A stretch of 64,000 nucleotides of DNA from Fulvivirga ligni (lineage in GTDB: Bacteria > Bacteroidota > Bacteroidia > Cytophagales > Cyclobacteriaceae): positions 6,286,501 to 6,350,500 of the forward strand of contig NZ_CP089979.1 of assembly GCF_021389935.1 (NCBI RefSeq). The letters are read 5' to 3'. A program made the position numbers and the translations under genes. The notes beneath the pieces are model-generated. The model had not been told where the DNA came from. It searched no databases and worked only from the letters and a program-made list of their open reading frames with translations. This document shows positions 32,661 through 54,730 of the stretch, piece after piece (within the stretch, counting starts at the first letter, position 1; every line of letters starts with the position of its first letter).

Positions 32661-34187
32661 CTAATTCACTTCAAATACAACCACTGAAAATGGTGGTACG
32701 GTTAAAGTAAGTTCTCCTTTTTTAGCTTTGAATTTCTTAAACTCAGCAAGCTTTATTTTGTCAGGCTGCTCGAAGGTGTTGTGGTCTTGTAGCTGAGCTG
32801 AAGTTAAAATTTCTGCTTTAGCATTTTTTAAATCAACATTTCCTAAACTGAACGTGATGTCATTGGCTTTTTTAGCGTCAATGTTCACCACAGAAATATG
32901 GATTTTACCATTGCTATCTTTAGAAGCTGAAGCTGAAATAGCTGGCAGCTTATCATCTCCGAATGAATAGAACTTTTCGTCTACCTTCAATGGCAAGAGC
33001 TGAGCATCCTGATGTACGCTGTACATCTTCATGACCCAATAGGTGGGCGTAAGGATCATTTTTTCCTTATCAGTAAGGATAACAGCCTGCAAGACGTTAA
33101 TAGCCTGAGCCAGGTTAGCCATACGAACTCTCTCCGCGTGATTATTGAAAATATTCAAGGTAGCACCGGCAATCATGGCATCTCTCATGGTATTTTGCTG
33201 ATATAGAAATCCCGGGTTAGTGCCCTCTTCCACATCATACCAGCCGCCCCACTCATCAACCACTAAGGCAATTTTCTTTTCAGGATCATACTTATCCATA
33301 ATAGCACTGTGCTTTTCAATCAGCTCTTCCATTCTTAGCGCCTGCTTCATTATTTTGAAATATTGCTCTTCAGAGAAAGTTGCCGCAGGGCCTTTATTCC
33401 CCCAGTCGATTACCGAATAGTGATGCAAGGCCATGCCCTCGATCATGTGATTAGGAATGTTTTTCATTAGTACTTCAGTCCAGTTATAATCATCAGAACT
33501 GGCGCCAGAAGCTATTCTATATAAACCCCCAGGCATGAAGGTCACATATTTCCTGTAGATATTTGAATAATACTCAGGAGTCATATTTCCACCACAGCCC
33601 CACGCTTCGTTTCCAATGCCCCAAAATTTCACATCCCACGGCTCTTTTCTACCGTTTTCTATTCGGTATTCTGACATAGGACTCTGTCCGTCATGAGTCA
33701 CGTACTGAGCCCAATCAGCAACCTCCTGCACGGTACCGCTTCCCACATTAGCAGAGAGATAAGGCTCAGCCTCTAGCAGTTCGCACATATTTAGGAAGTC
33801 ATGGGTACCGAAACTGTTATCTTCCGTAACGCCACCCCACCATTTGTTCACAATAGTAGGTCTGTCTTTTTTGGGTCCAATACCATCTTTCCAGTGATAA
33901 GTATCGGCAAAACAACCACCGGGCCATCTCAAATTGGGTATTTTAAGATCTTTAAGGGCCTTTACTACATCATTCCTTACTCCGGCAGTATTGGGTATTT
34001 CAGAGTCTTCACCCACATAGAATCCACCATAGATACATCTACCAAGATGCTCTGCGAAATGCCCATAAATATCTTTGTCAATTTTAACAGACGGCTTATC
34101 AGTCTGAATGTCAACCTTAACCTGCGCCCATAAAGTTGAGGACATCATAAGACAGCAGGTAAAGATCCAGCGGTTTAGAATTTTCAT
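32661..34187 (-). CDS. Alpha-L-arabinofuranosidase, GH51
   Basis: A 508-aa exported glycoside hydrolase of family 51 with a signal peptide (about 1-22, ending LWAQ). The catalytic (beta/alpha)8 barrel contains the acid/base E194 in WGIGNEAWG and the nucleophile E312 in VVDEWGGWY. The C-terminal beta-sandwich (about 400-508) ends VPPFSVVVFEVN, as is usual. It removes alpha-L-arabinofuranose from arabinan, arabinoxylan or arabinogalactan side chains. It is the last gene of the PUL, which supports an arabinose-containing target. The distance to the GH2-malectin gene upstream is 72 bases. Confidence 0.95.
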   Translation of the reverse strand: MKILNRWIFTCCLMMSSTLWAQVKVDIQTDKPSVKIDKDIYGHFAEHLGRCIYGGFYVGEDSEIPNTAGVRNDVVKALKDLKIPNLRWPGGCFADTYHWKDGIGPKKDRPTIVNKWWGGVTEDNSFGTHDFLNMCELLEAEPYLSANVGSGTVQEVADWAQYVTHDGQSPMSEYRIENGRKEPWDVKFWGIGNEAWGCGGNMTPEYYSNIYRKYVTFMPGGLYRIASGASSDDYNWTEVLMKNIPNHMIEGMALHHYSVIDWGNKGPAATFSEEQYFKIMKQALRMEELIEKHSAIMDKYDPEKKIALVVDEWGGWYDVEEGTNPGFLYQQNTMRDAMIAGATLNIFNNHAERVRMANLAQAINVLQAVILTDKEKMILTPTYWVMKMYSVHQDAQLLPLKVDEKFYSFGDDKLPAISASASKDSNGKIHISVVNIDAKKANDITFSLGNVDLKNAKAEILTSAQLQDHNTFEQPDKIKLAEFKKFKAKKGELTLTVPPFSVVVFEVN

Positions 34188-34259: not shown

Positions 34260-36941
34260 CTAATATTCCTTTCTCACTTTTAGCCCATTGAGCACTGCCT
34301 GACCAGCAGAAGCATCAAAAGTTAACTGAAGGCCTTTTTCATCTTCCACAAACACCTCTGTTTTGATTTCTACGGCCACACGTTCACCGTATTGTTCCGC
34401 AAGATTCAGGTCGTCAATGATTAAATTTCCATTGATATAAACATCAAATACACGTTTAGAAGCCTTCTCCTGTTTTGTGTCATTGCCAAGATTATAGACC
34501 AACTTCTCCAGCTCTTTATTAGATAGTAATTCTGCAAAATAAAAAGTTACTTCATACTTGCCTGCCGGAACATCTAACTGATATTCTTTGATATCATACT
34601 GCTGGGTTTGATAGATGGGGTCAATATTGGTACCGAGTATATCTGAAGGATTTTCCTTTTTAGATTGAAAATCACCCTTTTCACCCCATTGGCCTGCTTT
34701 GTACATCTGATCCGGCATCCATACTTCATGGGTGAGGTCATCTACAAAATAGCGGTGATCTCCCAGACTGATTCTGATTTCTTCAAAAGGCCATTTTTTA
34801 CTTTTTAGATCGTAAGGTTGAATCTGAAAATTCACCTGCATAAAATCCTTTACCTTCTTGCCATCTCTTTTCCCTATGGCTTCAAGCCAATTGATCCCAT
34901 TTTTAAATGGGACCTTCCAGCTCGCAACATTCTTATTCACCTGCTTCTCTCCCAAATCCTGACCATTCAAAAACAGATTTACTTTATCCAGATTGCTGTA
35001 CACTTCAAATTCCTGAGAAGAAACACCAGTATTTTCAGCATCTTCGACACCTGCTCTGTACTGCCAAATTTTTGATCCCAGGCCCACAAAAGGTTCTTTC
35101 CATAAGGCTGCCTGATAATAATAGAAAGCATCTTTTGGTCTTCTATCCTGAGTGACCAGGCCTTTGTTATTTACTTGCGGCACAGCATCTCTCCTGCCTG
35201 AAGAATAGAAATCATTCAGGTTCCAAACATTGGCACCAGCTACAAACGGGTACTTTTTGATTTGCTCCACATAGTGCTTGTGATAGTAAGTTTCATATTC
35301 CACTGTGAAATCAAATCGTTTAGGGTCAAAAGAATGCAATCTAGGATCGGCCCCTGCCCCATATTCGGTGATTATCAATGGCTTATCAGATAATTCCTGA
35401 TGATGCCTTTCCAGAAATTTCTCCAAGCCATGAATGTCAGCTCCGTACCACCCCGGATATAAATTCCAGCCGACAATCATCGGAATTTGAGTAAGTTGAG
35501 TATCTCTATAACCTTCAAACCAGCCGTGATTAGGAATCATGGTATATCTGGTGGGATCTTCCTTTCTGATCAAATTTTCCAGTTCCTGAGCCTGGCGAGT
35601 GATTTCTTTATAATAAGCCTTTCGTTCATCCGAATCATTACCATATCTTGGCCTAAGCAGAACTTCATTCATGTAAGCCCATATCACCACGCTGGGATGA
35701 TTAAAGTTTTGACGGATCATTTCCGTCATCATCTGCTTGCAATTGCTGAGGAAAACCTCTGATTCCGTCACTCTGTTAACGATCGGAATCTCTACAGAAG
35801 TAATAATCCCTAACTTATCACACATCTCCAGAATGGTAGGATCTTGAGGATAATGAGCTATTCTCAGGAAGTTGCCACCCATGGCTTTCAGCAATTTGAT
35901 GTCATTGATATGCAGCGCATCAGGCAGGGCATTACCTAAGCTTAAATAATCCTGGTGTCGGTTAGTGCCAATCAGTTTTACATGTTTCCCGTTAAGTGAA
36001 AAGCCTTCATTGCCGTCAAATTTAAACCATCGAAATCCCAGGGAATTTTCTACTTCATCCAGCACCTGCTTACTTTTGCTGTCTATTATTTTAGTGACAA
36101 CGGTGTACAAATAAGGATCTTCAATAGACCATAAATGCGGGTTTTTAATTTCTTTTATATTCTGACTCAGATCTGCAGCCAAACCTGGCTTTAACGTAAG
36201 TTTATTAAATACCTTTGCTATGACCTTCTTATCCGCATCTAAAATCAGCTGTTGAACTTCTACTTTGCTCGCTTGTTTTTGCTCATTAACCAAATGAGTC
36301 ATCACCTCCACTTCAGCCTGCTCGGTTGACACTTGCGGAGTGGTTATCTGAACACCAGAAGAGGCATATTTTTCTAAATCGGTATGAACAGGCTCCAAAG
36401 CTACTACATAAACATCTCTGTAGATACCACCGAAGAAAGTAAAATCTGCTTCTAAAGGAGGTATCTCTTCATTATGACGGTTGTTCAGCTTCACAGCTAT
36501 GGTGGCTGTAGATTTTTCAAAGTCTATGAGGTTGGTCATAGGAATGGCAAAGCGAGTATAGCCTCCGATATGACTCCCTGCCTTCTGGCCATTTACAAAA
36601 ACTTCAGCTTCCTGATTGGCCCCTTCAAAAAACAGGTAGAGCTTTTTACCTTTCCAATTAGGGCTAATGGACAATTCTTTAGTATACCAGGCTTCACCAC
36701 GATAATAACCTGGCTCTTCATCAGTAGCATCCTGAGCATTCCAGCTATGGGGCAGAGCAATGTGCTGCCAATCTACTGATTCTGCAAATGGCTGAGTAAG
36801 TTCACCTTGATGAAATTTCCAGCCTGAATTAATGCTAATCTTTTGTCTGACAGTGCTTTGTGCCTGAACTAAAGAAATGCTGGTAATAAGTAATAATAAT
36901 AGTGGTAGCTTGAAAGGATTCATTAGAAAAGTGTTAATCAA
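34260..36941 (-). CDS. GH2 glycoside hydrolase with C-terminal malectin domain
   Basis: A protein of 893 aa with a signal peptide (about 1-28, ending VQAQ). GH2 sugar-binding, Ig-like and TIM-barrel domains follow in order. The acid/base is E426 in IWAYMNEVLL and the nucleophile E526 in LIITEYGAG. After a beta-sandwich (about 600-710), a malectin-like carbohydrate-binding domain covers about 720-890 (ending VLNGLKVRKEY). GH2 members act on beta-galactoside, beta-glucuronide or alpha-arabinopyranoside bonds, and I cannot pick one. Met7 (36923) is an alternative start that also keeps the signal peptide. The role is probably removal of a galactose or glucuronic acid cap from the glycan. Confidence 0.9.
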   Translation of the reverse strand: MINTFLMNPFKLPLLLLLITSISLVQAQSTVRQKISINSGWKFHQGELTQPFAESVDWQHIALPHSWNAQDATDEEPGYYRGEAWYTKELSISPNWKGKKLYLFFEGANQEAEVFVNGQKAGSHIGGYTRFAIPMTNLIDFEKSTATIAVKLNNRHNEEIPPLEADFTFFGGIYRDVYVVALEPVHTDLEKYASSGVQITTPQVSTEQAEVEVMTHLVNEQKQASKVEVQQLILDADKKVIAKVFNKLTLKPGLAADLSQNIKEIKNPHLWSIEDPYLYTVVTKIIDSKSKQVLDEVENSLGFRWFKFDGNEGFSLNGKHVKLIGTNRHQDYLSLGNALPDALHINDIKLLKAMGGNFLRIAHYPQDPTILEMCDKLGIITSVEIPIVNRVTESEVFLSNCKQMMTEMIRQNFNHPSVVIWAYMNEVLLRPRYGNDSDERKAYYKEITRQAQELENLIRKEDPTRYTMIPNHGWFEGYRDTQLTQIPMIVGWNLYPGWYGADIHGLEKFLERHHQELSDKPLIITEYGAGADPRLHSFDPKRFDFTVEYETYYHKHYVEQIKKYPFVAGANVWNLNDFYSSGRRDAVPQVNNKGLVTQDRRPKDAFYYYQAALWKEPFVGLGSKIWQYRAGVEDAENTGVSSQEFEVYSNLDKVNLFLNGQDLGEKQVNKNVASWKVPFKNGINWLEAIGKRDGKKVKDFMQVNFQIQPYDLKSKKWPFEEIRISLGDHRYFVDDLTHEVWMPDQMYKAGQWGEKGDFQSKKENPSDILGTNIDPIYQTQQYDIKEYQLDVPAGKYEVTFYFAELLSNKELEKLVYNLGNDTKQEKASKRVFDVYINGNLIIDDLNLAEQYGERVAVEIKTEVFVEDEKGLQLTFDASAGQAVLNGLKVRKEY

Positions 36942-36999: not shown

Positions 37000-37986
37000 T
37001 TATTTAGGACAATCATTATCCTTAAAATAAGGTCCATCAGCATTCCATAGCACCTCTTTTTTAGAAATCATCCAGGTATGGCCATTGTCATTATTTCCCT
37101 GGAAGAAGAGGTAGGTTTTACCATCATTATCCTTAAAAATGTGGGGATGACCAGACTCACTACTGTTCCAGCTGCCGGGATCTCCATTTTCAAGAAAAGG
37201 CTTATTGGATAAACGCTCCCAATGTACTCCATCCTTGCTTTTAGCCAGGCCCACCTGCTGCGGCTGATTGTTATAAGCACCGGCATAAAACATGTACATT
37301 TCATCGCCTCTGGTAATCACTGAAGCTCCTTCCACGCACTCTCCTTCCCATGGATATTTATGGGCAAGCACAGGTCCATCCCCTTGTTGTATCCACTGGT
37401 CTCTGTCAAAAGATTGTCCTTTGGCCACCGCCACACCTTGCATTTGGGTAGTCATGGTGGTGTCACGGGTGGCGAAGTATAAATAGAATTTCCCTTTGAA
37501 CATTCCCACTTCCGCATCTATAGCACGGCCAACCGTCCAGCTGCCCTGAGGTCGGAATATTGGGTTGGTAGCGTTTTTCTGAAAATGAACACCATCCACT
37601 GACCAGGCATGGCAGATAGCATCCTTTTCCCAGTTACCATAAGTCTGATAGAAAAGGTGCACTGTATCGTTTCTCACCAAAGCCCCAGGAGCACACAGCC
37701 CTTTGGCCTCATAATCATATTCAGCGGCAATATGATCTATTGGTTTCCAGCTAGTTAAGTTGTGACTTTCGGCTATGCCAATGCCCCAGCCTTTAAATTT
37801 ATCGTTGGGAGGAGTGGAGTAATACATGAGATACCTGCCTTTGAAATTTACCACGTGCGGATCTTTGGAAAAAGGTCTTCCCAGACGTGAAGTATCACCA
37901 AATTTCATTTTGGGCTCTTGCTTTGAAGATTGAGCCATTACATTGGCACTTAGCAAGAGTAGTAAAAGGTACAAAAGGTTTCTCAT
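37000..37986 (-). CDS. GH43/GH117-like beta-propeller glycosidase
   Basis: A 328-aa exported protein (signal peptide about 1-18, ending VMAQ). It has the five-bladed beta-propeller pattern of the GH43/GH117 superfamily: repeated FKGRYLMYYS, MFKGKFYLYFA and MYMFYAGAYN blades. The three expected acids are D42 (KDPHVVNF), D157 (AIDAEVGMF) and E219 (ECVEGASV). I chose ATG 37986, because the in-frame start at 38025 adds 13 residues before the signal peptide. The substrate is probably an arabinose- or galactose-containing oligosaccharide. It does not match typical GH43 arabinanase well, so a less common branch or GH117 is possible. Confidence 0.75.
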   Translation of the reverse strand: MRNLLYLLLLLLSANVMAQSSKQEPKMKFGDTSRLGRPFSKDPHVVNFKGRYLMYYSTPPNDKFKGWGIGIAESHNLTSWKPIDHIAAEYDYEAKGLCAPGALVRNDTVHLFYQTYGNWEKDAICHAWSVDGVHFQKNATNPIFRPQGSWTVGRAIDAEVGMFKGKFYLYFATRDTTMTTQMQGVAVAKGQSFDRDQWIQQGDGPVLAHKYPWEGECVEGASVITRGDEMYMFYAGAYNNQPQQVGLAKSKDGVHWERLSNKPFLENGDPGSWNSSESGHPHIFKDNDGKTYLFFQGNNDNGHTWMISKKEVLWNADGPYFKDNDCPK

Positions 37987-38002
37987 AGTATCAGTTTTAT
38001 AA

Positions 38003-38044
38003 ACAGCCTTAAAGCATGACCGCAATCTTGTGCTTTAAGGCTGT
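38003..38044 (-). terminator. Intra-PUL hairpin, terminator-like
   Basis: A perfect 14-bp stem, ACAGCCTTAAAGCA (38003-38016) with TGCTTTAAGGCTGT (38031-38044), has a 14-base loop. It lies between the ADP-ribosylglycohydrolase gene and the GH43-like start. On the minus strand TTTATAAAA follows, a weak U tract, so partial termination or RNA stabilisation is likely. Confidence 0.7.
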
Positions 38045-38053: not shown

Positions 38054-41000
38054 TTATTTCAATAATATTTTTTCACATCTGGAATAGTCTCCCGAACTGA
38101 TCTTCAATAAAATCATACCCTGATGACCTAGTGAAGATGTTTCAAGCTCTATTTGCTGGGTGTTTTCATAATCTTTGTGCAAGAGCTCTTTCCCATCAAT
38201 AGTGAGTAATTTCACATTGATTTGAGACTGTAATTTAGGCAATTGAACCGTGAGCTTGCCCTCGGTAGGATTAGGAAATACGTTAAATTGAGAATCCAAT
38301 TTACTTTCGGGTGATTCTTCTCTGGCAAAACCTGATGGCTTAGAAAAATCTCGCTCAAATCTCCATAACTGACTATCTCCACCAACAAAGTCCCACTGCC
38401 CTACCTTGGCTCCGTTATTCGTATTCAGCCCTAAAACATCCATGGCCTTCCCGCTATGACGATTAATTATTCTGTAATAACCATTACTTTCAGGTATGAT
38501 AGACCACTGCTGATTGTGGCCACCCCAATAATCGAATTGCTTTACAAAAGCACCGTTGGTGGTCAGTGAATTCTCTATCTCAAGTGACTTGCCGGAATGC
38601 ATGGGTGTTATTCGGTAAAAACCTCCATTGGTCAGTTCTACTTTGTATTGTTGATTCAGGTTGCCCAAATATTCCCACTGAATGAGTTGCGCCAGGTTAT
38701 TTTGTGACATGGCATCGATATCTAATGACTTGCCGCTCATTTTATTGATCATTCTATAAACACCACCTGAAACTACCTGATTTGGAGCAGGATCAGCGAG
38801 TTTTTCCAGTTTCCATTGCTGGTGTGCTCCTCCGGTGTATTGCCATTGCCTAACGTCAGCACCATTTTGAACAGAGGCATTTGCCACTTCCATCACCTTG
38901 CCACTATTATTGTTAATCAGCTTAAAGAATCCATCGCCGGTGCTCACTACAGCCCATTGCTGGTTGCCTCCACCAAGATAATCCCACTGCACCACCGTAG
39001 CTCCATTGGCCATTGAAACACCTAAAACATCTAGTGATTTATTGCTATGAAGCGGATAAATAGCATATACACCATGACTCACTTCCTCCAATCTGAATTT
39101 TTGATTGTTGCTACCGAAATAATCCCATTGCAACAAGTTATCACCATTATTTTGGCCGCTAGAGCCAAGATCTAAACTCTTATTTGAATTTCGGTTGATG
39201 ATTTTATAAACACCGCCAGTGAGAATACCAGAATCGTCAGCTGGCTTGTTTCCATCAAATGCCGCCAATACTTCAATCTTATCAATCTCAGCATAATTGG
39301 CCACTCTGGTAAGTTTGATGGTATTACTACCTTCATTTAAGCGTACCGGAGCCTCTATGAAATTCTGTGAAAACTGTCCCCACGGGCCGCTGTCAGGATA
39401 TTCAACATTACCCAGGCTGACACCATTTACCTGAAGTTGATGTAAGCCCATGGAAGTAGTAGCATTGGCATAGAAAATCCTTACCATATGCTCACCCGAG
39501 TAAGAAGCAGAAACATTTTGAAATTCGATGGAGCTGGTATTGGAATCAATTCCGCCTACATAAGATCCACCTGAGGCCGATGAAGAATTGTATAAACGAA
39601 CAGCATTGAGCACGGCATTCTCTGATTCATAACTTACTGATGGCAAGGTGGGTACCTGAGTTATAACAATATCATCCAAGTTAGCCCACTTACCTGGGTT
39701 AGTGGTTGGTGGCGTGTGCATGCCTACATCCATGGAAGTGCTATTAGGACCAAGCGTTACATACAAATAGCGATAAGGAAAATCCGACAAATGATTATAA
39801 ATGGAGGTGTAAATGTATGGTCCGCCGTAGTTATCTGCATAGAAGCGGGCCTGTCTGCCTGCCGTGCTATTCATACGGGCTTCTACTTTATAAGTGGCTC
39901 CGGGGGTTAATCCCGTCACCGTCTGGTAAAGCTTGGCATCATCCTGATCCGAGCCAGTGATTACGGTCCCTTTATATTCTCCTGTTGCCGCAAAGCAGGC
40001 TTTAGTGCCATTGTTGCATTGTCGTTCTACAAAAACAGCGTTGCTATTACCGGCTGAGCCCCAGACATTCCAATTAGTAAAGTCACCCATTTCAAAATCC
40101 CAGTTTTGAGTGGCAATGCTAGGGATATTGGCTGTTTCTCTGTTTACATTATAGGTATTTCCAGCGACAGTGCCACCATAAGCCCTAAGCATACGCTCCA
40201 TATTTCTTTGGAACAAACTGGTAAGATCGGTGAACTTATGCTCCACAGGAAAGTCTTTATCCATATGCAATGCATGGTTCATATCGTTGATCCACTTACC
40301 GTTTCCATTAGCATAAATATTATCAACAAAAGCCTGGGGTGTGCCTGACATTCCTTTGATAATCCCCATCATACCGCAAATATTAGCGGCAGTACAATCT
40401 CCATCTCCACCAGCCAGTGAGCAGATTTTGAGGGTCTCCATGTAGTTATTTTCCCCATAGAACACGGCCAGTAATCCAAGGCCGTGATTCACTTCTGGCT
40501 GCAAATGCACTTTATCTGACCCTACTGCGTATACGCCTCTTCTGTGATCATTCCACAGCTCACGGACAGCCGCTCGCCAGTCGTTAGGATATTTTTGATG
40601 TAAAGAAACGGCTATATCATACATTTCCCGGGCATAACAATTTTGCGGCAATACGCCCAGTGCTTTTTCTACCACCACACGAGCATCCGTTTCAAAGTAG
40701 GCGATAGCATGAGCTGCTGCCCAATATTGCCCCCAAAGCAGATTCTCTCCCTGGCCCGACATGCTGGCAAACTTGGCTACATACTCAGCTGCCTTGTTGG
40801 GCATACCTGGAAAATTGGCGCCCACCATTTCATGTTCGATGTAACATTCCGGGAGCCAGTGCCCATAATTACCATGTTCCCTCTGGCCCATTAAAGGAGC
40901 AATTAAATTTTTACTGTTAATTAGGCCTAGGGCATCAGCTGTACCTCCAAAATCACGCAGATCATGGGTAATCCATTCCTTCTTAATATCCTCAAAAGCC

Positions 41001-41425
41001 ACTGAGGGGCCATACTGTTCCAGGATATGCTGGTTGAATACTTCTACATGCTGGTCATCATCAGAGTAGATAATGCCAGGCTGGTAATTCGAAAAGTAAT
41101 TGTATTCATCTTTGGTGGTGCCGCCCAAAGTACCGTTCAACAGGATAAACCAATCGTCAGGAAGGCCCAAAAGAAACTCAACGGGCTGTTTCACAGTAGC
41201 TCCGGGCTGGTAAAACCCATTAGGCGTATTGTATACTTTCAGATATTCATATCCCGTGACTACACCACCACATGTACCAATGAGCATAGCCAGTGTTTTG
41301 TCATAATACTCTTGTTTGGAAAGAGTAACCTGCTGCGAATAAGTGTTAAAAACACACGTAAAAAAAGAAAAAAATAATACCAGATTAAAGAGCCTATTAG
41401 AGGCTCTATTTTCTAAGTTTAACAT
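38054..41425 (-). CDS. Secreted ADP-ribosylglycohydrolase-fold protein with CBM, R-type lectin and T9SS domains
   Basis: A 1123-aa multidomain protein. After a signal peptide (about 1-31) comes an ADP-ribosylglycohydrolase (ARH) domain at about 38-420. Metal-site motifs are YSDDD (D122-D124) and AGGDGDCTAANICG (D341, D343). They correspond to the TDDT and GGDTD(S/T) boxes, with Gly and Cys replacing Thr and Ser/Thr. A CBM4/9-like domain (about 440-592), a CBM6/CBM35-like domain (about 598-720), two ricin-type beta-trefoil lectin domains (about 736-876 and 886-1026, QxW repeats) and a T9SS type A sorting domain (about 1047-1123) follow. The ARH family removes ADP-ribose, but this secreted form among glycosidases more likely cuts a ribosyl/arabinosyl-type glycan bond (inference). 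Confidence 0.85.
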   Translation of the reverse strand: MLNLENRASNRLFNLVLFFSFFTCVFNTYSQQVTLSKQEYYDKTLAMLIGTCGGVVTGYEYLKVYNTPNGFYQPGATVKQPVEFLLGLPDDWFILLNGTLGGTTKDEYNYFSNYQPGIIYSDDDQHVEVFNQHILEQYGPSVAFEDIKKEWITHDLRDFGGTADALGLINSKNLIAPLMGQREHGNYGHWLPECYIEHEMVGANFPGMPNKAAEYVAKFASMSGQGENLLWGQYWAAAHAIAYFETDARVVVEKALGVLPQNCYAREMYDIAVSLHQKYPNDWRAAVRELWNDHRRGVYAVGSDKVHLQPEVNHGLGLLAVFYGENNYMETLKICSLAGGDGDCTAANICGMMGIIKGMSGTPQAFVDNIYANGNGKWINDMNHALHMDKDFPVEHKFTDLTSLFQRNMERMLRAYGGTVAGNTYNVNRETANIPSIATQNWDFEMGDFTNWNVWGSAGNSNAVFVERQCNNGTKACFAATGEYKGTVITGSDQDDAKLYQTVTGLTPGATYKVEARMNSTAGRQARFYADNYGGPYIYTSIYNHLSDFPYRYLYVTLGPNSTSMDVGMHTPPTTNPGKWANLDDIVITQVPTLPSVSYESENAVLNAVRLYNSSSASGGSYVGGIDSNTSSIEFQNVSASYSGEHMVRIFYANATTSMGLHQLQVNGVSLGNVEYPDSGPWGQFSQNFIEAPVRLNEGSNTIKLTRVANYAEIDKIEVLAAFDGNKPADDSGILTGGVYKIINRNSNKSLDLGSSGQNNGDNLLQWDYFGSNNQKFRLEEVSHGVYAIYPLHSNKSLDVLGVSMANGATVVQWDYLGGGNQQWAVVSTGDGFFKLINNNSGKVMEVANASVQNGADVRQWQYTGGAHQQWKLEKLADPAPNQVVSGGVYRMINKMSGKSLDIDAMSQNNLAQLIQWEYLGNLNQQYKVELTNGGFYRITPMHSGKSLEIENSLTTNGAFVKQFDYWGGHNQQWSIIPESNGYYRIINRHSGKAMDVLGLNTNNGAKVGQWDFVGGDSQLWRFERDFSKPSGFAREESPESKLDSQFNVFPNPTEGKLTVQLPKLQSQINVKLLTIDGKELLHKDYENTQQIELETSSLGHQGMILLKISSGDYSRCEKILLK

Positions 41426-41499: not shown

Positions 41500-43860
41500 T
41501 TAGATCAGGCTTAAGTCAAGGTCAGCATTCTCGTTAATGAGCCTGCAACCAAATATACCGCCCGCTGTGGCCCCGGGATGGGCCTGAAATTTGACTACGA
41601 TAGATTTCTTCCCCTTCAACAAGGCATTAGGAATGGGGTAAGTGATGAAATAATAATCCTGGCCGTTTTTCTTTATTTGCTGCGTGGCAATCTTTTCATT
41701 GTCTACCATGATATCGAAGACTCTGTTGCCACCATCAGGACCGAAGTATCGGCACACCAAGGCTATATTTTTATTCTGATCAGATAATGACATTTCGTAA
41801 GAGAACCAGCCTCCATCGGTAGCGTGCCTCCATTTTTCTGTGGTTCCACCGGCTTCTGTCTTTTCACCTGTGAAATTATGATCTCTTTCTGGCTGCATTT
41901 CGCCTATTCTCACGATATCAAGCGTATTTTTCTCCAGCTTTTCCTTGGCTGCCTTCTGAGCATTTAGCTGTGCTAGTTTATTTTGCCAGCCATCCTCATC
42001 CATGAAGTCAAAGTAAACAGCATAATTATCTTTATAGATTTGATAAAAAGGCTTGAGCACCGCATCAGATGGTTTGGTTACATTCACCGTTCTAAACATA
42101 AGATCATCACCTTCCTTTTTCTCCAAAGCAGATTCTAATGTGCTCTCATTTAATACAAATGATGGAATATCTTCAGGGTTCAACTCTTTGATGCCAAGAT
42201 CAGCCGCAAGTACTAGTGGACCATAAAGAATGGCCTTTTTAGAGCTGTCGCCACGTAAATCTTCAGTATGAATGCTCATTGGTAGCTCGTATTCCAGAAT
42301 ATCACCATCCTTCCACTCTCTTTTGATGGAAATATAAGATGATGGGTTTCCATCTACTTCTACCATTTCTCCATTAACCCGAACTAAAGGCTTGCTAGCA
42401 GCCCAGGCAGGCCATCTCAGTTGAATATTCAGTTCTTTAGGCTGATCCACAGTAATCGTATATTTCATACTGCTTTCTTCCGGATAGTTGGTCTCCAGCT
42501 TTATCTTGGTCTTCTGCTCTTCCCAATTAAGGATGGATGGAATAAAAAGATTAGCCCAAAGGGTATTTTGATGATGGAAATAGATATTTCCACCGTATTT
42601 CACATGATTTTCCAGACCTGTTCCCACGCAGCACCAGAAATCTTCCGTGGCGTGACTGAATTTTTTACCTTCACCTGAAGCCATGTTTACATAGTAGGTA
42701 ATCATGCCCGTTTCAGGGTTTTGAGAAGCCAGAATATGATTGTATAAAGCTCTTTCATAATAGTCTGCATACTGAGCCTGAGGATCCCAGGTGAACAATT
42801 CACGAGTGAGCTTCAGCATGTTGTAAGTATTGCAGGTCTCTGCTGAGTTAGTACTCAACCTGCCGGTAAGATTATCGGCCGGCCCAAAATGCTCAAAGTT
42901 GCTGTTACCACCTATTACATAGCTATGATGGTTTACCACTCTGTTCCAAAAGAACTCTACTCCTGCCCGCTTGCTATCGTCTCCACTAAACTCATACTGA
43001 CGGCCAAGGCCTATCAATTTTGGAATCTGAGTATTGGCGTGCAAACCTTCCAACTGATCATTTTGGTGAATAATTGGATCTAAGACCGCCTTATGATTAA
43101 ACTTTTCGGCCAGATCATAATATTTCTTATCGCCGGTAATGCCATATAGGTAAGTGAGAGATTCATTCATCCCTCCATGCTCACAGGCAAGCATTTTCTG
43201 AAAATCATCCTGACTAAGACTGCCTACAGTATTTACCGCCCAATCTCCCAATTGGGTAACTATTTCTTTGGCTTTTTCATTGCCAGTGAGCAAGTACACA
43301 TCGATTAATCCTGCAAAAAGCTTATGCAAATTATACCATGGCACCCAGCCACCATTAAGATCAAAGCCTGCCGATCTGATATCTCCATTACTGACCTCCT
43401 TAAATATTCTCTCATGCTCAGGCACAGCGCCTACATAGCCATTTCCATAGGCTTTTTGACAATCCGCTAATTCGTCAACTATATAATTTGCTCTATCTAG
43501 AAACTCCTTATCGCCAGTAGCATCATATCCCATGGCCAGTGCCGACAAATAATGCCCTAAAGTCTGACCGGAAACACCTCTGCTCTCCCAACCACCATAG
43601 ATTGAATCCTTGGGTTGCAGACCAGCAAACTTCCTGAACCTATACAACAGTCGATCTGGCTTCAGCAATAGAATCCATTCCCTATCTTTTTCATAGGCAT
43701 GAGTGAACGGACTTTCCAATAGTTCCACCTGATGTAAAGCAAATGGCTCAGCCTGAAGCTCTACTTTTTTTTCTACGGCCAGCTTCGGCTGTTCTTTTTT
43801 ATCGCAAGCTATGAGCAGACACACAGCACCTGCGGTGAGTAAAATATTCTTTAATTTCAT
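41500..43860 (-). CDS. Beta-L-arabinofuranosidase, GH127 (lipoprotein)
   Basis: A 786-aa lipoprotein with lipobox LLIAC (Cys19). The alpha/alpha-barrel GH127 domain carries the zinc site of HypBA1: E341 and C343 in SAETCNTYN, and C410 and C411 in FWCCVGTG, where C410 corresponds to the catalytic Cys nucleophile. E323 (SNFEHFG) lies near the expected acid/base Glu. A C-terminal beta-sandwich (about 660-780) looks like a carbohydrate-binding or discoidin-type domain. HypBA1 removes beta-L-arabinofuranose from arabinofuranosyl-hydroxyproline chains. A similar activity on arabinogalactan, extensin or RG-II is likely. It is the second of two adjacent GH127-type genes (gap 15 bases). Confidence 0.92.
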   Translation of the reverse strand: MKLKNILLTAGAVCLLIACDKKEQPKLAVEKKVELQAEPFALHQVELLESPFTHAYEKDREWILLLKPDRLLYRFRKFAGLQPKDSIYGGWESRGVSGQTLGHYLSALAMGYDATGDKEFLDRANYIVDELADCQKAYGNGYVGAVPEHERIFKEVSNGDIRSAGFDLNGGWVPWYNLHKLFAGLIDVYLLTGNEKAKEIVTQLGDWAVNTVGSLSQDDFQKMLACEHGGMNESLTYLYGITGDKKYYDLAEKFNHKAVLDPIIHQNDQLEGLHANTQIPKLIGLGRQYEFSGDDSKRAGVEFFWNRVVNHHSYVIGGNSNFEHFGPADNLTGRLSTNSAETCNTYNMLKLTRELFTWDPQAQYADYYERALYNHILASQNPETGMITYYVNMASGEGKKFSHATEDFWCCVGTGLENHVKYGGNIYFHHQNTLWANLFIPSILNWEEQKTKIKLETNYPEESSMKYTITVDQPKELNIQLRWPAWAASKPLVRVNGEMVEVDGNPSSYISIKREWKDGDILEYELPMSIHTEDLRGDSSKKAILYGPLVLAADLGIKELNPEDIPSFVLNESTLESALEKKEGDDLMFRTVNVTKPSDAVLKPFYQIYKDNYAVYFDFMDEDGWQNKLAQLNAQKAAKEKLEKNTLDIVRIGEMQPERDHNFTGEKTEAGGTTEKWRHATDGGWFSYEMSLSDQNKNIALVCRYFGPDGGNRVFDIMVDNEKIATQQIKKNGQDYYFITYPIPNALLKGKKSIVVKFQAHPGATAGGIFGCRLINENADLDLSLI

Positions 43861-45996: not shown

Positions 45997-46701
45997 TTAG
46001 AGATCAATTTTTTCTACAGGAGAAAAAATCATGTCTTCTACGCCTTGGATTTTTAAGCCTATGCGGGCGTAGATGTAGTTTTGGTTAGGCACTAAATCTG
46101 GCACATCAACCGACAGGTTCACAGAAGACCCGGTAATATCACCTCCTCCAATTTCGGAGTTTCTGATATTATTACCTCCGCTTACAAATTGAGTTTTGTT
46201 GATATAGAGATTTACCCTTTCTATGCCTTTGGCATCATCTCCCGTAATCACTTGCTCAAGATCCGCAGAGGCTGAGATAGTTCTACCTGAAATGGAGAAA
46301 TTACTGTTGTTAACCATGTAATACGGCAACACCTCAATATCCATTTCCACAATTCCATTAAGATTGACATTAATGGTGTCAGAATTAGTCTCACCATTCA
46401 CAAGTGGAATATAAGGCCCTTGCCCACCCGGGAAGGTTAGCTTATAGGACCCAGAGAATAAGACTGAGGAAAATGAACCATCTTGAGCAATTGCTACATC
46501 TATAGGTAGCAAAGAATTATACTTAGGCTCCCAAAGTTGAAACCTTACCTGGTCATGTTGCACATTAATGGGCGTTCCATTATAAACAATATTACCTTTG
46601 AAGAAAACATCAGGAGCATCATAGTTATCCTTCTCACATGACGCAAAGAAAACCACCGCCATTAATCCCAAAAGTATTTTTATATTATTTTTAAACATCA
46701 T
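45997..46701 (-). CDS. DUF3823 lipoprotein (surface glycan-binding candidate)
   Basis: A 234-aa lipoprotein with lipobox FASC (Cys22) and the DUF3823 pattern: a beta-sandwich near residues 32-125 (FKGNIVYNGTPI, VRFQLWEPKY, LFSGSYKLTFPGG) and a second Ig-like domain (about 130-234). DUF3823 genes are found next to SusD in Bacteroidota PULs and are thought to encode outer-surface glycan-binding proteins that help SusCD. It follows SusD2 by 13 bases. Confidence 0.85.
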   Translation of the reverse strand: MMFKNNIKILLGLMAVVFFASCEKDNYDAPDVFFKGNIVYNGTPINVQHDQVRFQLWEPKYNSLLPIDVAIAQDGSFSSVLFSGSYKLTFPGGQGPYIPLVNGETNSDTINVNLNGIVEMDIEVLPYYMVNNSNFSISGRTISASADLEQVITGDDAKGIERVNLYINKTQFVSGGNNIRNSEIGGGDITGSSVNLSVDVPDLVPNQNYIYARIGLKIQGVEDMIFSPVEKIDL

Positions 46702-46714
46702 TTTAGAATTTAGA

Positions 46715-48649
46715 TTATTGATTAGGATTTCTTACTAGTTTCGGATTGGAGGCAATATGGCCATCAGGTATTTGAGAGTAATAATTGCCTAATCTGAATA
46801 AGTCATTTCCAGTTACCGGATTGGGTTTAGTAATTTTAAAAACCCAGTCAATATGATTTTCCAACCCTGCAGCTGGTGGATTATCAGGATGGTTTGGATC
46901 ATAGTACTTGTATGGTATCAAAGCAAACACTTGTGTCATTCGGTTATCAGCCTCACCAAGACCTGTTTCCAAATCCTGAACATCCATAGAGTTTCCATCC
47001 CAAACTTCATGAGCCAACCTCCAACGTTTCATATCCCAAAGTAAATGAGACTCAAACGCCAATTCTACTTTTCTTTCATGTACAATTCTATCAAAGGTTA
47101 AATCTGCACTGGTAAGGTCTGTTGTGAAACCAGCTCGTCTTCTTAAGAGATTCATATAATCTACGGCCTCATCACTTCTTCCTAATTCAAACAATGCTTC
47201 AGAAGCATTGAGAAGAATTTCTCCGTATCTAAAATGAATCCACCAAACTTCACTTTGAGTTCCTAAAGAACCTGCTCCATCAATTGGATCGAGGTATTTT
47301 CTTATCAGAAACCCAGTTTGGGCTGTATTTTCACGTCCTGGTATAGGACCATCTCCACCTACTACAACCTCAGGATCAGCTTTTCCTGGCAGTTTTTTCA
47401 GGGTTACAAAATCGGTAGCTGTAATTATTGAGTCATCAGGAACAATGTATCCACCCCATATATCCAACTTATTTCCCTTAAATGTAGAACCAGGAACTAT
47501 TATAGTACCTTCCAATCTTGCGTCTCTATTAGCGAAAATTTCACGGGCCGTACTATAATGTATGTAATCCCCACTCTCTTCGATCTTTAGAGGCTCAAAA
47601 GTATTATCGAGTAGCTCAAATTCTTCTACCATGTTTAATGATGGGTTCATTCGTGATCCGAAGGACTCCTCGGTCATGCTAAATGGCTGATTTTCTACTG
47701 TAAAACCTTGAAATTTATGCTTTAATAAAAAATCTTCTACAAAAATCACTTCCGAATTACCACTCTTATCCAAGAATAGCTGTGAAAAATTATTAATCCT
47801 ACTCTCTATAGGATCATTCTCGTCAATAGCATCTACATAAAGCTGATACCCTAAATCCATCACGGCCTCTGAGGCTTCTAATGATTTTTCATAATAGTCA
47901 TCAGCCATAGATGCAGGAATACCAACTTCTTCCCCAGGCAATGATACGGAAGGCGTTGAGGTTCCATGCTTTGCGATAGAACCAGCATATAATGCAGCTC
48001 TTGATATAAGCGCATAAGCAGCTCCTTTTGTGGCCCTACTTTTTTCATTGATATCGCCAGGTAGATAATCTATTATACCTTCTAACTCATTAATTACAAA
48101 ATCATATATTTCATATTCTTTTGCTCGTGGGTATTGAAGATAAGCAGGATCGCCATTGAAATCATACTCCAAAGGCTCTAGAATTAATGGCACCCCGCCA
48201 TCTCTAATCACCATATTGAAGTAAAGAAAAGCCCTTAGAAACTTAGCCTCTGCGGCAAACTTCTCCAGATCATCATTTGTTAACTGAGACGAGATCACAG
48301 CTTCAGTTTCTAAGCTTTCTAAAAAAAGGTTAAGGTCTCTTACATATCCATAATCCCACATGAACCAACTTCCATAACCGAAATCATTATTAGAAAACCT
48401 TCCATAGGTACCGTTTCTCGAGATTAATGCTTCATTTAAATCTCCATAAGCATCTATGTTTTGAAAATGCTGGTAGTTCGGTATTCTGTCGTATAAATCA
48501 GAAAGAACATTCGTTATTAAAACTTTACTGCTCCAAATTTGCTCAGGAAGCAACAAGTCTGTTGGCTCCTTACTTAAGAATTCCTCATCATTACATGAGG
48601 TAGATAAGGCCAAAACCAACCCGACTAAAAGTATATATATTTTTTTCAT
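46715..48649 (-). CDS. SusD/RagB-family surface glycan-binding lipoprotein (SusD2)
   Basis: A 644-aa lipoprotein with lipobox STSC (Cys19). It has the TPR-like helices of SusD (LKFAAEAKFLRAFLYFNMV-like segment at about 110-130, with FLRAFLYFNM) and a C-terminal signature of the RagB/SusD family (ERKVELAFESHLLWDMKRW). It forms the lid over SusC2 at the outer face of the outer membrane and captures the glycan before import. It is 11 bases from SusC2 upstream and 13 bases from DUF3823 downstream. Confidence 0.94.
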   Translation of the reverse strand: MKKIYILLVGLVLALSTSCNDEEFLSKEPTDLLLPEQIWSSKVLITNVLSDLYDRIPNYQHFQNIDAYGDLNEALISRNGTYGRFSNNDFGYGSWFMWDYGYVRDLNLFLESLETEAVISSQLTNDDLEKFAAEAKFLRAFLYFNMVIRDGGVPLILEPLEYDFNGDPAYLQYPRAKEYEIYDFVINELEGIIDYLPGDINEKSRATKGAAYALISRAALYAGSIAKHGTSTPSVSLPGEEVGIPASMADDYYEKSLEASEAVMDLGYQLYVDAIDENDPIESRINNFSQLFLDKSGNSEVIFVEDFLLKHKFQGFTVENQPFSMTEESFGSRMNPSLNMVEEFELLDNTFEPLKIEESGDYIHYSTAREIFANRDARLEGTIIVPGSTFKGNKLDIWGGYIVPDDSIITATDFVTLKKLPGKADPEVVVGGDGPIPGRENTAQTGFLIRKYLDPIDGAGSLGTQSEVWWIHFRYGEILLNASEALFELGRSDEAVDYMNLLRRRAGFTTDLTSADLTFDRIVHERKVELAFESHLLWDMKRWRLAHEVWDGNSMDVQDLETGLGEADNRMTQVFALIPYKYYDPNHPDNPPAAGLENHIDWVFKITKPNPVTGNDLFRLGNYYSQIPDGHIASNPKLVRNPNQ

Positions 48650-48660
48650 CGCTATTCTAT

Positions 48661-51600
48661 TTAAAGGGTTAGATTGATTCCAAAATTGAATACCTTATTC
48701 TGAGGATATTGAAGACCATTAGGGTCAATAATTTCTGGTTCAATACCTAGATCATGCACATTATCTATAGAGAAGAGGTTAAATGTATTTACATACACTC
48801 TCAGTTTCGTAATCTTAGCTTTTTCTAAAATATTTTCAGGGACACTGTATCCTAATTCTAATGTTCTTGCCCTTAAATATTTAACATTGGTACTAAAGAA
48901 AGTGGAGGGTACATCACCGTTTCTATAATTACTATGCCCACCCTCATTATATCTTAAGGCTGGATATGTTCCTGCAACCCATTCACTATTAACATCAAAC
49001 GGGTCTTCTCTATGCCACCTATCCTGATAGATAGCTAACAAATTTCCACCGTTTTGGTAAGGCCATAACATTTCCCATCTCTGTTGGAAGGTATACATTG
49101 AACCACCGGAAAAATCAGCAGTGAAATCGAATCCCTTATAGTCAAATGAGAAGCTAAGACCAAAGTTTACTATAGGATTTCTGTCCGGGGAATATCCTAT
49201 AGGTCGCTCATCTAGTCCATCAATTTTTCCATCTCCATTCTGGTCTTTGTATATTAAATCTCCTGGCAAAAGGGTTTCATTTCCACGTCCGTCAATATTT
49301 ACAGGGTAATCACTAATTTCCTCTGCAGACTTAAACTGGCCTTCCACTTCATAACCCCACATGATGTTATTCCATCTATTCTCTATACTAGATCTGTATT
49401 CATTCCATGAATTACCAAAAACAGGCTTATATGAAGATAGGAATTTACTTCTAGCGTAAGAGACGTTGCCTCCAACTGAGAAATTAGCTTCTCCAACCTT
49501 CCCGAAATACATTAATGAAACCTCTCCTCCAATAACAGCATCACTATTTACATTTTCATCAGGAAGAGCATATCCTAACTCTGCAGGTAATAATACATCA
49601 TACTTTCTACCTCTAAGACCTGTCCTTTTTCTATAGAAGTAATCTACTGTACCAGATAATTTACTATTAAAGAGACTAAAATCTGTACCTATATCTGTAG
49701 TAGTACTAGTAAACCAAGATAGGTTGTTCACTGTATTTCTGTAGCGTGCTCCTAATACTATCTGACCATCAAATACAGAGCGTCCTGTACCTGTGTTGTA
49801 ACCATAGCCAGGTAGATAAGCAAACGGATCAATACCGATATTATCATCCCCTAACTGACCGTAAGAAACTCTTAATTTTAAACTACTTAAAACTTTTGTT
49901 CCTATTAAGTCTTTTATGAAAGGCTCATCTGTAACAAGCCAACCTGCGGATACGGACGGGAAATATCCCACTCTATTTTCAGGTGAGAACTTCCAAGAAG
50001 CGTCTCTTCTGCAAACCAACTCTAAGAAATACTTATCTGCAAAGTTGTAAGTTAAGCGACCAACATATCCAATCCTGGCTTCAGGTTGATCTAAATCTGC
50101 AAAATCCGTATCATCCATTGTAGAAAATGAAAGGTTAGGCAAATAATTATTAGTGGGTACTGCATGTTGAAAAGTATAAAGTCTTCTTCTTTCTATCCTT
50201 TCATTTACAAATGTCGCACCTATTGTATGTTGTCCAAAGGTATTTTTATAATCCACCTGAACCTGAGATACTTTGTTAAAAACTTTTTCAAGTCTTCTTT
50301 CTCTCCACGGATTAGTACTTCCTCCAGTACGTGTGTAAGTGCTATCAGCAGGATTGAAGGTATAAGCATCATAAGTATATTCATGACCATTAGTTACCAT
50401 GTCTGCTAAGTAGTAAGAATACTTACCTGACACTTTTAATCCCTTAACAAATGGCACCTCATATGAACCTGTGAAGTTCGTTTGTAACACTCTCCAATCT
50501 TGAGTCCAATATCCAGAATTTTCTTTATTCAAAAGCCCCCAGTTTTCTGCGTTATGACCGATATCATTCAGGTATTCTGGATTGTCATTAGCAAATGGCC
50601 TTTCCCAAGGCAAATTACGAAGAAGAGCAAATCGTGGAGCCCAATAATCATCACCTCCAGGTACACCTGGATTATCCCTTGTTTCAATTCTACCATTTAT
50701 CTGAACTCCAATTTTTAGGTTTTTAGTAATATTAGCATCTATATTACTCTGCATATTTGTTCTGCCAAATGTGAATTCTCTACCAAGAACAGAAGATTGA
50801 TCTAAGCGCGTTAATGATACATAATAATTTATCTTTTCACTACCGCCAGTAGTACTGAGGTTTATAGATGTAAGAGGTGCGTCCCCTTCAATAATATAAT
50901 CATACCAATCAAAATCTCGATAACCATACTCTGTACCTTCTTTCCATCTTTCGAGTTCTTCAGGCGTCATACTTGTTCCTGGATTTACTCGATTCATATC
51001 CGCCTCTAGTTTTCCAACTTGCCATTCATAAGAATTAACAGTTTCAGGAAAACGAGACCAGTTCTGAACACCGTAATATGCATCTAAATTAATAGTATTA
51101 CTTTCTCCTCTCTTACCTCTCTTGGTTGTAACCAATACTACTCCATTGGCAGCTCTAACACCGTAGATGGCTGCTGATGCATCTTTAAGTATAGTTATAC
51201 TCTCAATGTCATTTGGAGCTAGGTTATTAAATTGTCCTGCATCTTGTTGTATTCCATCAATTACGTAAAGTGGGTCTCCCATATTACGGATTTGAATGGT
51301 AGCTGATGCACCAGGTCTACCATCAGGCATTCTGAAAGTAACGCCTGGCAGTTTACCTGCTAAACCAGAACTTACGGTAGATCCACCGTGAACCTTACCT
51401 ATCTCTTCACTGGTAATGGATGATACAGCAGCTGTAATAGACTGTTTGGTTTGGGTCCCATATCCTGTAACCACCACCTCATCCAATGATTGAATATCAG
51501 ACTCTAATTGTACATCTATTGTGCTTCTGCCATTAATAGCCACTTCTTGAGATTTGTAGCCTATGAAGGAGAAGATAAGTGTATTCTGATCATCGGGTAC

Positions 51601-52122: not shown

Positions 52123-52141
52123 AATTTTATGATTTTGTTTT

Positions 52142-52204
52142 AAACATGTAATAATCCGCTTTAGCAGCGTCGCCAAACTATGCTTTGCGGAGGAAGAAAA
52201 ACCG
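52142..52204 (-). promoter_or_regulatory. Conserved SusC leader element, copy 2
   Basis: On the minus strand CGGTTTTTC (ending 52196), 15 bases, TAGTTTGGCGACG (52180-52168), then TTACATGTTT precede the SusC2 ATG by 46 bases measured from the GACG end. The same elements with the same 15- and 46-base spacing precede SusC1. It is probably a promoter/leader recognised by the PUL sigma factor. Confidence 0.6.
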
Positions 52205-52223
52205 GTATCTCATATCGGTTTTT
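52197..52223 (-). terminator. Hairpin upstream of the SusC2 leader
   Basis: A 12-bp stem (AAAAACCGGTAT with ATATCGGTTTTT, one G-U pair, loop CTC) spans 52197-52223. On the minus strand five T residues end the stem. It lies 98 bases past the DUF4998 gene and likely terminates its transcript. The last arm contains the conserved CGGTTTTTC box. Confidence 0.75.
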
Positions 52224-54715: not shown

Positions 54716-54730
54716 TTTATCATTAGAAAA

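What the first reader, a model, noticed from the sequence alone, without database searches (positions are those of the whole stretch)
38054..41425. Secreted ADP-ribosylglycohydrolase-fold protein with two lectin domains inside an arabinose PUL
Seen: an ARH-like domain (YSDDD, GGDGDC), CBM4/9-like and CBM6/35-like domains, two ricin-type lectin domains and a T9SS sorting domain, in a locus of arabinosidases and SusCD pairs. Known: ARH enzymes cut the alpha-N-/O-glycosidic bond of ADP-ribose with Mg2+ bound by the two acid boxes. Inference: the secreted, glycan-binding layout and locus suggest that the fold has been recruited to cut a furanosyl (arabinosyl or ribosyl) linkage in a polysaccharide, which would be a new kind of glycosidase. 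The Gly/Cys changes in the second box may mark the shift.
Basis: partly seen in the sequence, partly recalled or inferred. Interest (0 to 1): 0.78.

Follow-up and report, generated by a model that had tools for sequence, protein, structure and literature searches.

The report
Secreted ARH-fold enzyme in arabinose locus
A bacterium secretes a protein that puts an enzyme fold known for removing ADP-ribose onto sugar-binding domains, and the evidence suggests, without yet proving it, that it is an undescribed enzyme for digesting sugar polymers.

Summary
The 1123-aa protein at 38054-41425(-) has an ADP-ribosylglycohydrolase (PF03747) domain, a CBM4/9-like domain, CBM35, two ricin-B lectins and a T9SS tail, in a multi-SusCD locus with GH146, GH127, GH51 and GH43 relatives. 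The ARH-domain model (pTM 0.82) matches ARH structures, with high rmsd. Relatives with the same core (ARH, CBM4/9-like, CBM35) occur in Flavobacterium, a genome of the same order, Paenibacillus relatives and Cnuibacter. In the Gram-positive loci it has an export-type N-terminus and lies beside an ABC importer, while the partner glycosidases checked have none. The Glu and four Asp expected for ARH catalysis are kept. The Cys in box 2 is not special to this protein: it belongs to a deep non-canonical half of PF03747 (box 1 [D/Y/N/F]DD, box 2 DxD[C/N]; 19 of 81 surveyed proteins), some of which sit in ribose operons. Best reading: an extracellular furanosidase-type glycosidase feeding a dedicated importer. 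That the sugar is arabinose is not shown.

The parts
38054..41425 (-). whole gene, 1123 aa, secreted ARH-CBM4/9-CBM35-ricin-ricin-T9SS protein
   Evidence: ORF; domains
41336..41425 (-). N-terminal hydrophobic stretch, signal-peptide-like (residues 1-30)
   Evidence: read from the sequence; no dedicated predictor was run
40136..41320 (-). ARH (PF03747) domain, residues 36-430
   Evidence: Pfam; AlphaFold2 model pTM 0.82; Foldseek ranks 1-33 are ARH-family structures
41246..41248 (-). Glu60, aligned with the conserved Glu of the ARH motif (ARH3 E41 by recall)
   Evidence: E in 8 of 8 core, 24 of 24 other non-canonical and 30 of 33 canonical sequences
41054..41065 (-). acid box 1, S121-D122-D123-D124 (canonical Thr/Ser replaced by Asp122)
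40394..40405 (-). acid box 2, D341-G-D343-C344 (canonical Thr/Ser replaced by Cys344)
39656..40117 (-). CBM4/9-like beta-sandwich, residues 437-590
   Evidence: sub-threshold Pfam match in the window protein; listed for 6 of 9 core proteins, over threshold in 2
39260..39637 (-). CBM35/CBM6-type domain, residues 597-722
   Evidence: Pfam; listed for 9 of 9 core proteins, over threshold in 7; PDB CBM matches
38804..39220 (-). first ricin-B beta-trefoil lectin, residues 736-874
   Evidence: Pfam; QxW-like repeats
38351..38764 (-). second ricin-B beta-trefoil lectin, residues 888-1025
   Evidence: Pfam; QxW-like repeats; PDB lectin matches
38060..38281 (-). T9SS type A C-terminal sorting domain, residues 1049-1122
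   Evidence: PF18962; TIGR04183
43876..45981 (-). GH127-type glycosidase (701 aa), partner gene; E-x-C and CC cysteines kept
   Evidence: Pfam; PDB 5mqo/4qjy; homologues in 6 of 8 other core loci; Cys columns
41500..43860 (-). GH146-type beta-L-arabinofuranosidase relative (786 aa)
   Evidence: Pfam; PDB 5opj E=1e-170 (5opj as GH146/BT0349 is recalled)
37000..38025 (-). GH43-like protein, 55% identical to one in the Flavobacterium potami locus
34260..36941 (-). GH2 glycosidase with malectin domain, 48-49% identical to one in three Flavobacterium loci
32661..34187 (-). GH51-type alpha-L-arabinofuranosidase
   Evidence: Pfam and NCBIfam
45997..60099 (-). two SusCD pairs with DUF3823, DUF4998 and DUF5000 proteins
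60243..62002 (-). FecR anti-sigma and sigma factor pair
62197..63966 (-). GH2 glycosidase at the window edge; its likely start lies just outside (L204)

Best explanation
The protein is an extracellular, carbohydrate-bound glycosidase built on a non-canonical ARH fold. Two CBM-type domains and, in Bacteroidota, ricin-B lectins hold it on a polysaccharide. The ARH domain, with a metal site made of D123, D124, D341 and D343 plus D122 and C344 and with E60 close by, cuts a furanosyl linkage. The released sugars go in through the neighbouring importer (SusCD here, ABC transporters in the Gram-positive loci) and are finished by the partner glycosidases (GH127 type, GH146, GH51, GH43, GH2 here). Shown by computation: architecture, fold, conserved catalytic residues, locus context and cross-phylum conservation. 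Inferred: that it is catalytic, that the target is a furanosyl glycan, that it acts first, and the metal. The exact sugar is not settled.
For: Domains and location. ARH fold. E60, D123, D124, D341 and D343 invariant in 8 of 8 core sequences and in 24 of 24 other non-canonical ones (L010 and five duplicate rows left out of that count). Core of about 690 residues aligned end to end at 35-67% identity in 8 other loci of three phyla; Pfam lists ARH and CBM35 in 9 of 9 and CBM4/9 in 6 of 9. In the four Gram-positive loci the ARH protein has a hydrophobic N-terminus, whereas the GH127-type (3), DUF6259-like (2 of 4 checked) and GH88 (1) proteins do not, and ABC importer genes lie beside it (annotation; Pfam). 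GH127-type partner in 7 of 9 core loci including the window (L011 truncated at the contig edge; none in L002 or L025). GH146 relative of a solved beta-L-arabinofuranosidase-family enzyme. Other non-canonical ARH proteins sit with ribokinase, sugar transporter or nucleoside hydrolase or with DUF2961, GH92, GH125 and GH26, so part of the wider group already looks sugar-releasing. Canonical MR motif and GD Asp lost: MR in 24 of 33 canonical and 0 of 24 non-canonical; Asp in 33 of 33 and 0 of 24.
Against: No activity data; ADP-ribosyl hydrolysis is not excluded. The GH127-type partner is common without this ARH: 42 of 196 genomes of the Paenibacillus family sample have it, while 3 of 394 have the core ARH (candidates scored per genome were capped). 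No ribokinase, GRP transporter or nucleoside hydrolase homologue in the core loci, so the ribose link of the relatives does not carry over directly. The 14 Asn-type non-canonical loci show no such sugar neighbours by our queries, save SusCD at one, L084. Two of nine core loci (L002, L025) lack the GH127-type partner in the sequence held. L012 has another surface-type protein downstream, a metallophosphoesterase with SLH domains, so the ARH protein is not the only exported protein there. The model alignment contained canonical ARH sequences, so the fold match is not independent; rmsd is 6.6-10.9 A, E-values are 6.5e-5 to 0.02, loops have pLDDT under 50, and no coordinates were available to overlay the metal site.
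Confidence: 0.6

Rival explanations
1. It is a true ADP-ribosyl hydrolase or ADP-ribose/nucleoside scavenger, secreted to free ribose or ADP-ribose from nucleotides or proteins, that happens to sit in a glycan locus.
For: PF03747 membership; some non-canonical relatives beside ribokinase and nucleoside hydrolase; fold match to ARH3 and DraG.
Against: No ribokinase, nucleoside hydrolase or GRP transporter homologue in any core locus searched. CBM35 is listed in 9 of 9 core proteins and glycosidase-type genes are neighbours in 8 of 9 core loci (none recognised in L025). The MR and GD motifs of canonical members are lost.
Confidence: 0.15
2. The ARH domain is a catalytically dead carbohydrate-binding or scaffold module, and the protein is a secreted glycan-binding adhesin.
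For: Several appended binding domains; two canonical metal-ligand positions are changed.
Against: E60, D123, D124, D341 and D343 are invariant in the core family at identities down to about 35%. In Cnuibacter, of the two enzyme candidates next to the ABC genes (ARH and DUF6259-like), only the ARH protein has an export-type N-terminus.
Confidence: 0.1
3. It is a glycosidase, but for a pyranosyl or other non-furanosyl linkage; the arabinofuranosidase neighbours act on side chains only.
For: Non-canonical relatives also lie with GH65, GH130, and GH92/GH125/GH26; partners in Gram-positive loci include GH36, GH43, GH88 and DUF2264, one locus each.
Against: The biochemically known ARH substrates are ribofuranosides (recalled); neighbours shared between genera here are GH127 and GH146 furanosidase types.
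Confidence: 0.15

Closest known systems
Canonical ADP-ribosylhydrolases (ARH1, ARH3, DraG, MJ1187; Pfam PF03747)
   Same: Fold, two acid boxes, conserved Glu. ARH3 also cuts a ribose-ribose polymer, PAR (recalled).
   Different: Box-1 Thr/Ser is Asp, box-2 Thr/Ser is Cys, GD Asp and MR motif absent, secreted with CBMs, in a glycan locus; separated by a long branch (SH-aLRT 100, quick tree).
Non-canonical ARH homologues of ribose operons (P. distasonis rbsK-ARH-nucleoside hydrolase-GRP; by recall also RusGH of the B. thetaiotaomicron rus locus)
   Same: Same side of the deep branch, DDD or YDD box 1 and DxDC or DxDN box 2.
   Different: No CBM, lectin or T9SS domain listed by Pfam in three non-canonical relatives scanned (L198, L199 from ribose operons, L201); ribokinase-type neighbours absent at the core loci.
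GH127 and GH146 beta-L-arabinofuranosidases
   Same: Work in the same locus; same presumed sugar class (furanosides).
   Different: Unrelated fold; Cys nucleophile on Zn (recalled); here they are separate genes.
GH172 (DUF2961) furanosidases
   Same: A recently founded furanosidase family (PMC8605356, listing and start of abstract seen; that it is GH172 = DUF2961 is recalled); a DUF2961 gene lies in the same locus as a non-canonical ARH in L097.
   Different: Different Pfam family, no known relation to PF03747.

Membership tests
PF03747 ADP_ribosyl_GH superfamily | Pfam model match over cutoff | tested here: met
   56.5 bits, cutoff 26.2
PF03747 ADP_ribosyl_GH superfamily | all-alpha ARH fold | tested here: met
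   pTM 0.82; Foldseek ranks 1-33 ARH family at probability 1.00, TM up to 0.70 of target, rmsd 6.6-10.9 A; the model alignment included canonical ARHs
Canonical ADP-ribosyl hydrolase (ARH1/ARH3/DraG type) | [T/S]DD ... DxD[T/S] metal ligands | tested here: not met
   four Asp kept, but Thr/Ser replaced by D122 and C344
Canonical ADP-ribosyl hydrolase (ARH1/ARH3/DraG type) | GD(A)xG and MRxxP motifs | tested here: not met
   Val56 for Asp; no MR; MR in only 24 of 33 canonical sequences but 0 of 24 other non-canonical; Asp 33 of 33 and 0 of 24
Canonical ADP-ribosyl hydrolase (ARH1/ARH3/DraG type) | cleaves ADP-ribosyl bonds | not testable with these tools
   needs protein assay
Non-canonical PF03747 clade | non-T/S box 1 coupled to C/N in box 2, one side of a deep branch | tested here: met
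   whole survey: 18 of 19 with non-T/S box 1 have C/N, 57 of 57 with T/S have T/S, 5 of 81 unreadable or fragments; tree: 37 rows, SH-aLRT 100, one TS exception
Ribose-operon ARH homologues | ribokinase / ribose transporter / nucleoside hydrolase neighbours | tested here: not met
   no tblastn hit in the window or 14 core-locus and extension sequences
Polysaccharide-utilization-locus enzyme | secreted, CBM-bearing, beside SusCD and glycosidases | tested here: met
Glycoside hydrolase (new family) | hydrolyses a glycan | not testable with these tools
   needs assay; no paper describing such an enzyme found in searches of one held library

The most novel reading that the evidence does not exclude
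A new glycoside hydrolase family: a secreted, probably metal-dependent ARH-fold depolymerase, possibly endo-acting, that opens a furanosyl-rich polysaccharide for a dedicated importer. It has an altered metal site (DDD/DxDC) and is shared between Bacteroidota, Bacillota and Actinomycetota, with the wider non-canonical half of PF03747 being sugar-releasing furanosidases instead of ADP-ribosyl hydrolases.
Probability: 0.4. Interest if true: 0.8.

Novelty: new variant of a known kind. Interest (0 to 1): 0.62.

Why it matters
If true, an enzyme fold studied for removing ADP-ribose from proteins has a secreted branch that digests sugar polymers, giving CAZy a new family and a test of whether many genes now named ADP-ribosylglycohydrolase (19 of 81 surveyed here in one phylum carry the non-canonical site) are really sugar-releasing enzymes. 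The paired Thr/Ser to Asp and Thr/Ser to Cys changes give a simple sequence rule for which genes to test.

Tried and rejected
Search for a solved structure related by sequence: the close-family profile gave only one match, a tyrosyl-tRNA synthetase at E=0.011, taken as chance; a wider profile reached ARH structures. First model, six sequences over three domains, was too poor (mean pLDDT 59, pTM 0.46) and was not used. Literature: no paper in the held library joins ADP-ribosylglycohydrolase with polysaccharide utilization loci, CAZyme or furanosid-; with SusD, and with glycoside hydrolase plus arabinofuranosidase, only PMC10434189, whose one passage names such a gene beside a hemin locus. Other spellings of the name were searched only. 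The rus-locus paper (Glowacki 2020) is not held. Considered and rejected: Cys344 as a special mark of this protein; the lectins as essential (absent in 0 of 5 Bacteroidota and 4 of 4 Gram-positive members); obligate pairing with GH127. My first motif and neighbour tables rest on a partial sample: canonical members were under-sampled and 7 of 59 regions with a PF03747 match fell below my profile cut. I then classified the whole survey and checked those 7 for ribokinase-type neighbours, finding none. The Cys/ribokinase association rests on few, partly related loci, and the query proteins came from three of them and two plasmids.
Full report
Observation. The ORF 38054-41425 on the minus strand codes for 1123 aa. 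Pfam and NCBIfam give an ADP_ribosyl_GH domain, a weak CBM4/9, a CBM35, two ricin-B lectins and a T9SS tail. The motifs YSDDD and GGDGDC begin at residues 120 and 339, and six QxW-like repeats fit two beta-trefoils. The own genome has one PF03747 match, this gene. No tandem DNA repeats were found in the gene.

Locus. The window holds, all on the minus strand, GH51, GH2 with malectin, a GH43-like protein, the ARH protein, a GH146-type protein (PDB 5opj, E=1e-170), a GH127-type protein (PDB 5mqo and 4qjy), DUF3823, SusD, SusC, DUF4998, DUF5000, SusD, SusC, FecR, a sigma factor and a GH2 at the edge. Outside the window the genome continues with a glutaminase-A-like protein, GH43, aldose epimerase, two proteins without Pfam hits, GH43, SusD, SusC and an HTCS regulator. 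Among the 19 window proteins scanned, only the ARH protein has a T9SS tail by Pfam.

Relatives. tblastn, a genome-contig scan and genome searches found the same core at 66-67% identity in three Flavobacterium species, 52% in a genome of the same order (L025), 35-36% in three members of the Paenibacillus family and 35% in the moss-associated actinobacterium Cnuibacter physcomitrellae. All nine proteins were scanned: ARH is listed in 9 of 9, CBM35 in 9 of 9 (over cutoff in 7), CBM4/9 in 6 of 9 (over cutoff in 2), ricin and T9SS in 5 of 5 Bacteroidota and 0 of 4 Gram-positive members. It is rare: 3 of 394 genomes of the family of L013's genome, 1 of 299 of the genus of L009's genome (that genome itself), 2 of 194 of the window's order including its own genome (candidates scored per genome were capped). 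In 395 genomes of the phylum a single-sequence search at E up to 1e-20 found the window protein and four distant non-canonical relatives. The core-family clade has SH-aLRT support of 100 and a long stem.

Neighbour conservation. A GH127-type homologue (41-44% identity, 37% in the truncated L011) lies in the same locus in 7 of 9 core loci including the window, and not in L002 or L025 as far as their sequence goes. Its E-x-C and CC cysteines are kept, the signature of GH127 catalysis by recall. GH146-type and GH2 genes are shared with the three Flavobacterium loci, and the GH43-like gene with the one whose downstream region was fetched. A DUF6259-like protein lies next to the ARH gene in all four Gram-positive loci (Pfam scores 24.5, 31.8, 25.1 and 28.5 against a cutoff of 28.7). 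As a control, the GH127-type gene alone is common, 42 of 196 genomes, so its presence is not special but its nearness is. In the Gram-positive loci the ARH protein begins with a hydrophobic stretch, while the GH127-type (3), DUF6259-like (2) and GH88 (1) proteins checked do not, and ABC solute-binding and permease genes adjoin. The simplest reading is an outside enzyme, an importer and inside enzymes. Against a too simple picture, L012 also has an SLH-bearing metallophosphoesterase-type protein downstream. Signal peptides were judged by hydrophobicity, not by a predictor. L025, on a short contig, has no recognised glycosidase neighbour.

Fold and active site. A model of the ARH domain from 32 sequences has pTM 0.82 and mean pLDDT 72.5, with weak loops. 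Its best 33 PDB matches are ARH-family structures (probability 1.00, TM up to 0.70 of target, rmsd 6.6-10.9 A, E 6.5e-5 to 0.022, 10 of them at E up to 0.001), and rank 34 is unrelated at probability 0.12. Canonical ARH sequences from viral contigs were in that alignment, so this is support and not independent proof. A profile-to-PDB alignment pairs box 2 of the family with that of MJ1187, 6dre, Lmo0067 and DraG, and box 1 with that of MJ1187 (ARH3 is in the list, but its alignment was not printed). Among 70 aligned sequences, after dropping five duplicates, E60, D123, D124, D341 and D343 are kept in 8 of 8 core and 24 of 24 other non-canonical sequences, and in 30, 33, 32, 32 and 31 of 33 canonical ones (the last four computed from the printed fractions). 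The Thr/Ser positions known as metal ligands (recalled) are Asp122 and Cys344. No coordinates were available for an overlay of the metal site.

Two halves of the family. PF03747 was sampled in 198 genomes of the window's phylum; 65 have a member, 82 matches in all. A first, partial table of 56 proteins (54 survey regions and five others; 7 regions fell below my profile cut) gave box 1 Thr/Ser with box 2 Thr/Ser in 33 of 33, and another box-1 residue with Cys/Asn in 22 of 23. All 82 matches were then classified as 81 proteins: 57 of 57 with Thr/Ser in box 1 have Thr/Ser in box 2; of 19 with another residue, 18 have Cys or Asn (5 Cys, 13 Asn) and 1 Ser; 5 are fragments or lack readable boxes. 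In the quick tree the two halves are split by a branch with support 100, with 2 changes needed for box 2 and 1 for box 1; the program warns of long branches, among them the one joining the core family to the Asn-type clade. The coupling is thus one or two old events and not many independent ones, so the Fisher values must not be read as independent evidence.

What the other half does. Ribokinase homologues lie within about 8 kb in 4 of 8 Cys-type loci, 0 of 14 Asn-type, 0 of 1 mixed and 0 of 36 canonical loci (the query kinases came from these loci and from plasmids, and three of the four are one clade). Of eight annotated plasmid loci opened, P. distasonis has rbsK, ARH, nucleoside hydrolase and a GRP transporter; Flammeovirga rbsK, GRP, ARH and SusCD; Agrobacterium two ARH genes, an ABC importer and ribokinase; Spirosoma rbsK and GRP around the unannotated match; Sinorhizobium, Enterobacter and Deinococcus have no annotated ribokinase there, and the eighth is the Cnuibacter core locus, also without one. 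A ninth record has no annotation. One more member lies in a locus with GH125, GH92, GH26 and DUF2961. The B. thetaiotaomicron rus locus BT2803-2809 is required for ribose use (passages of PMC12596196). That it holds an ARH gene is recalled. A staphylococcal trio of ARH, permease and ribokinase is in print (passages of PMC3637587); whether that one is canonical was not tested. No ribokinase, GRP or nucleoside hydrolase homologue lies at the core loci, and the large Asn-type group shows no such neighbours by our queries, so its role is open.

Interpretation. The core family looks like a secreted offshoot of a half of PF03747 part of which is sugar-linked. I think a furanosidase-type glycosidase is most likely (0.6). 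The sugar is open. Arabinofuranosidase neighbours favour an arabinose-rich glycan in the window and Flavobacterium, but in Gram-positive loci the partners include GH88, DUF2264, GH43 and GH36. Canonical ARH binds the ribose 2,3-cis-diol on its metals (recalled), which arabinofuranose lacks and ribofuranose or apiofuranose has. Either the sugar is not arabinose or the changed metal site (D122, C344) accepts another geometry. Core-only invariant residues such as H126, N131, W190, E193, Y195, W231, R249, R296 and D304 are candidates for the specificity pocket.

Literature. In the held library, searches joining ADP-ribosylglycohydrolase with polysaccharide utilization loci, SusD, CAZyme, furanosid-, or glycoside hydrolase plus arabinofuranosidase gave at most PMC10434189 (one passage seen), which does not describe such an enzyme there. 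Absence from print is claimed only for these searches.

Noticed in passing
   Followed up: partly
L059, 4500-8870: Four PF03747 genes in tandem, mixing canonical and non-canonical boxes; one has degraded boxes.
   Followed up: no
L082, L085, L087-L096: Twelve closely related DDD/DxDN ARH homologues form one clade; none shows SusC or SusD homologues in the flanks by our queries (L085 has one sigma-factor hit); function unclear.
   Followed up: no
L010, 16123-18444: The GH146 gene of Flavobacterium zhairuonense is read as two adjacent ORFs, so it is probably interrupted; intact relatives exist.
   Followed up: no
L113, 5356-7467 and L097, 9609-11099: FGE-sulfatase-like (formylglycine-generating-type) domain proteins lie next to non-canonical ARH genes.
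   Followed up: no
L200, 5735-9055 and L202, 5735-9055: Rhizobial operons carry a canonical and a non-canonical ARH gene side by side with an ABC sugar importer.
   Followed up: partly
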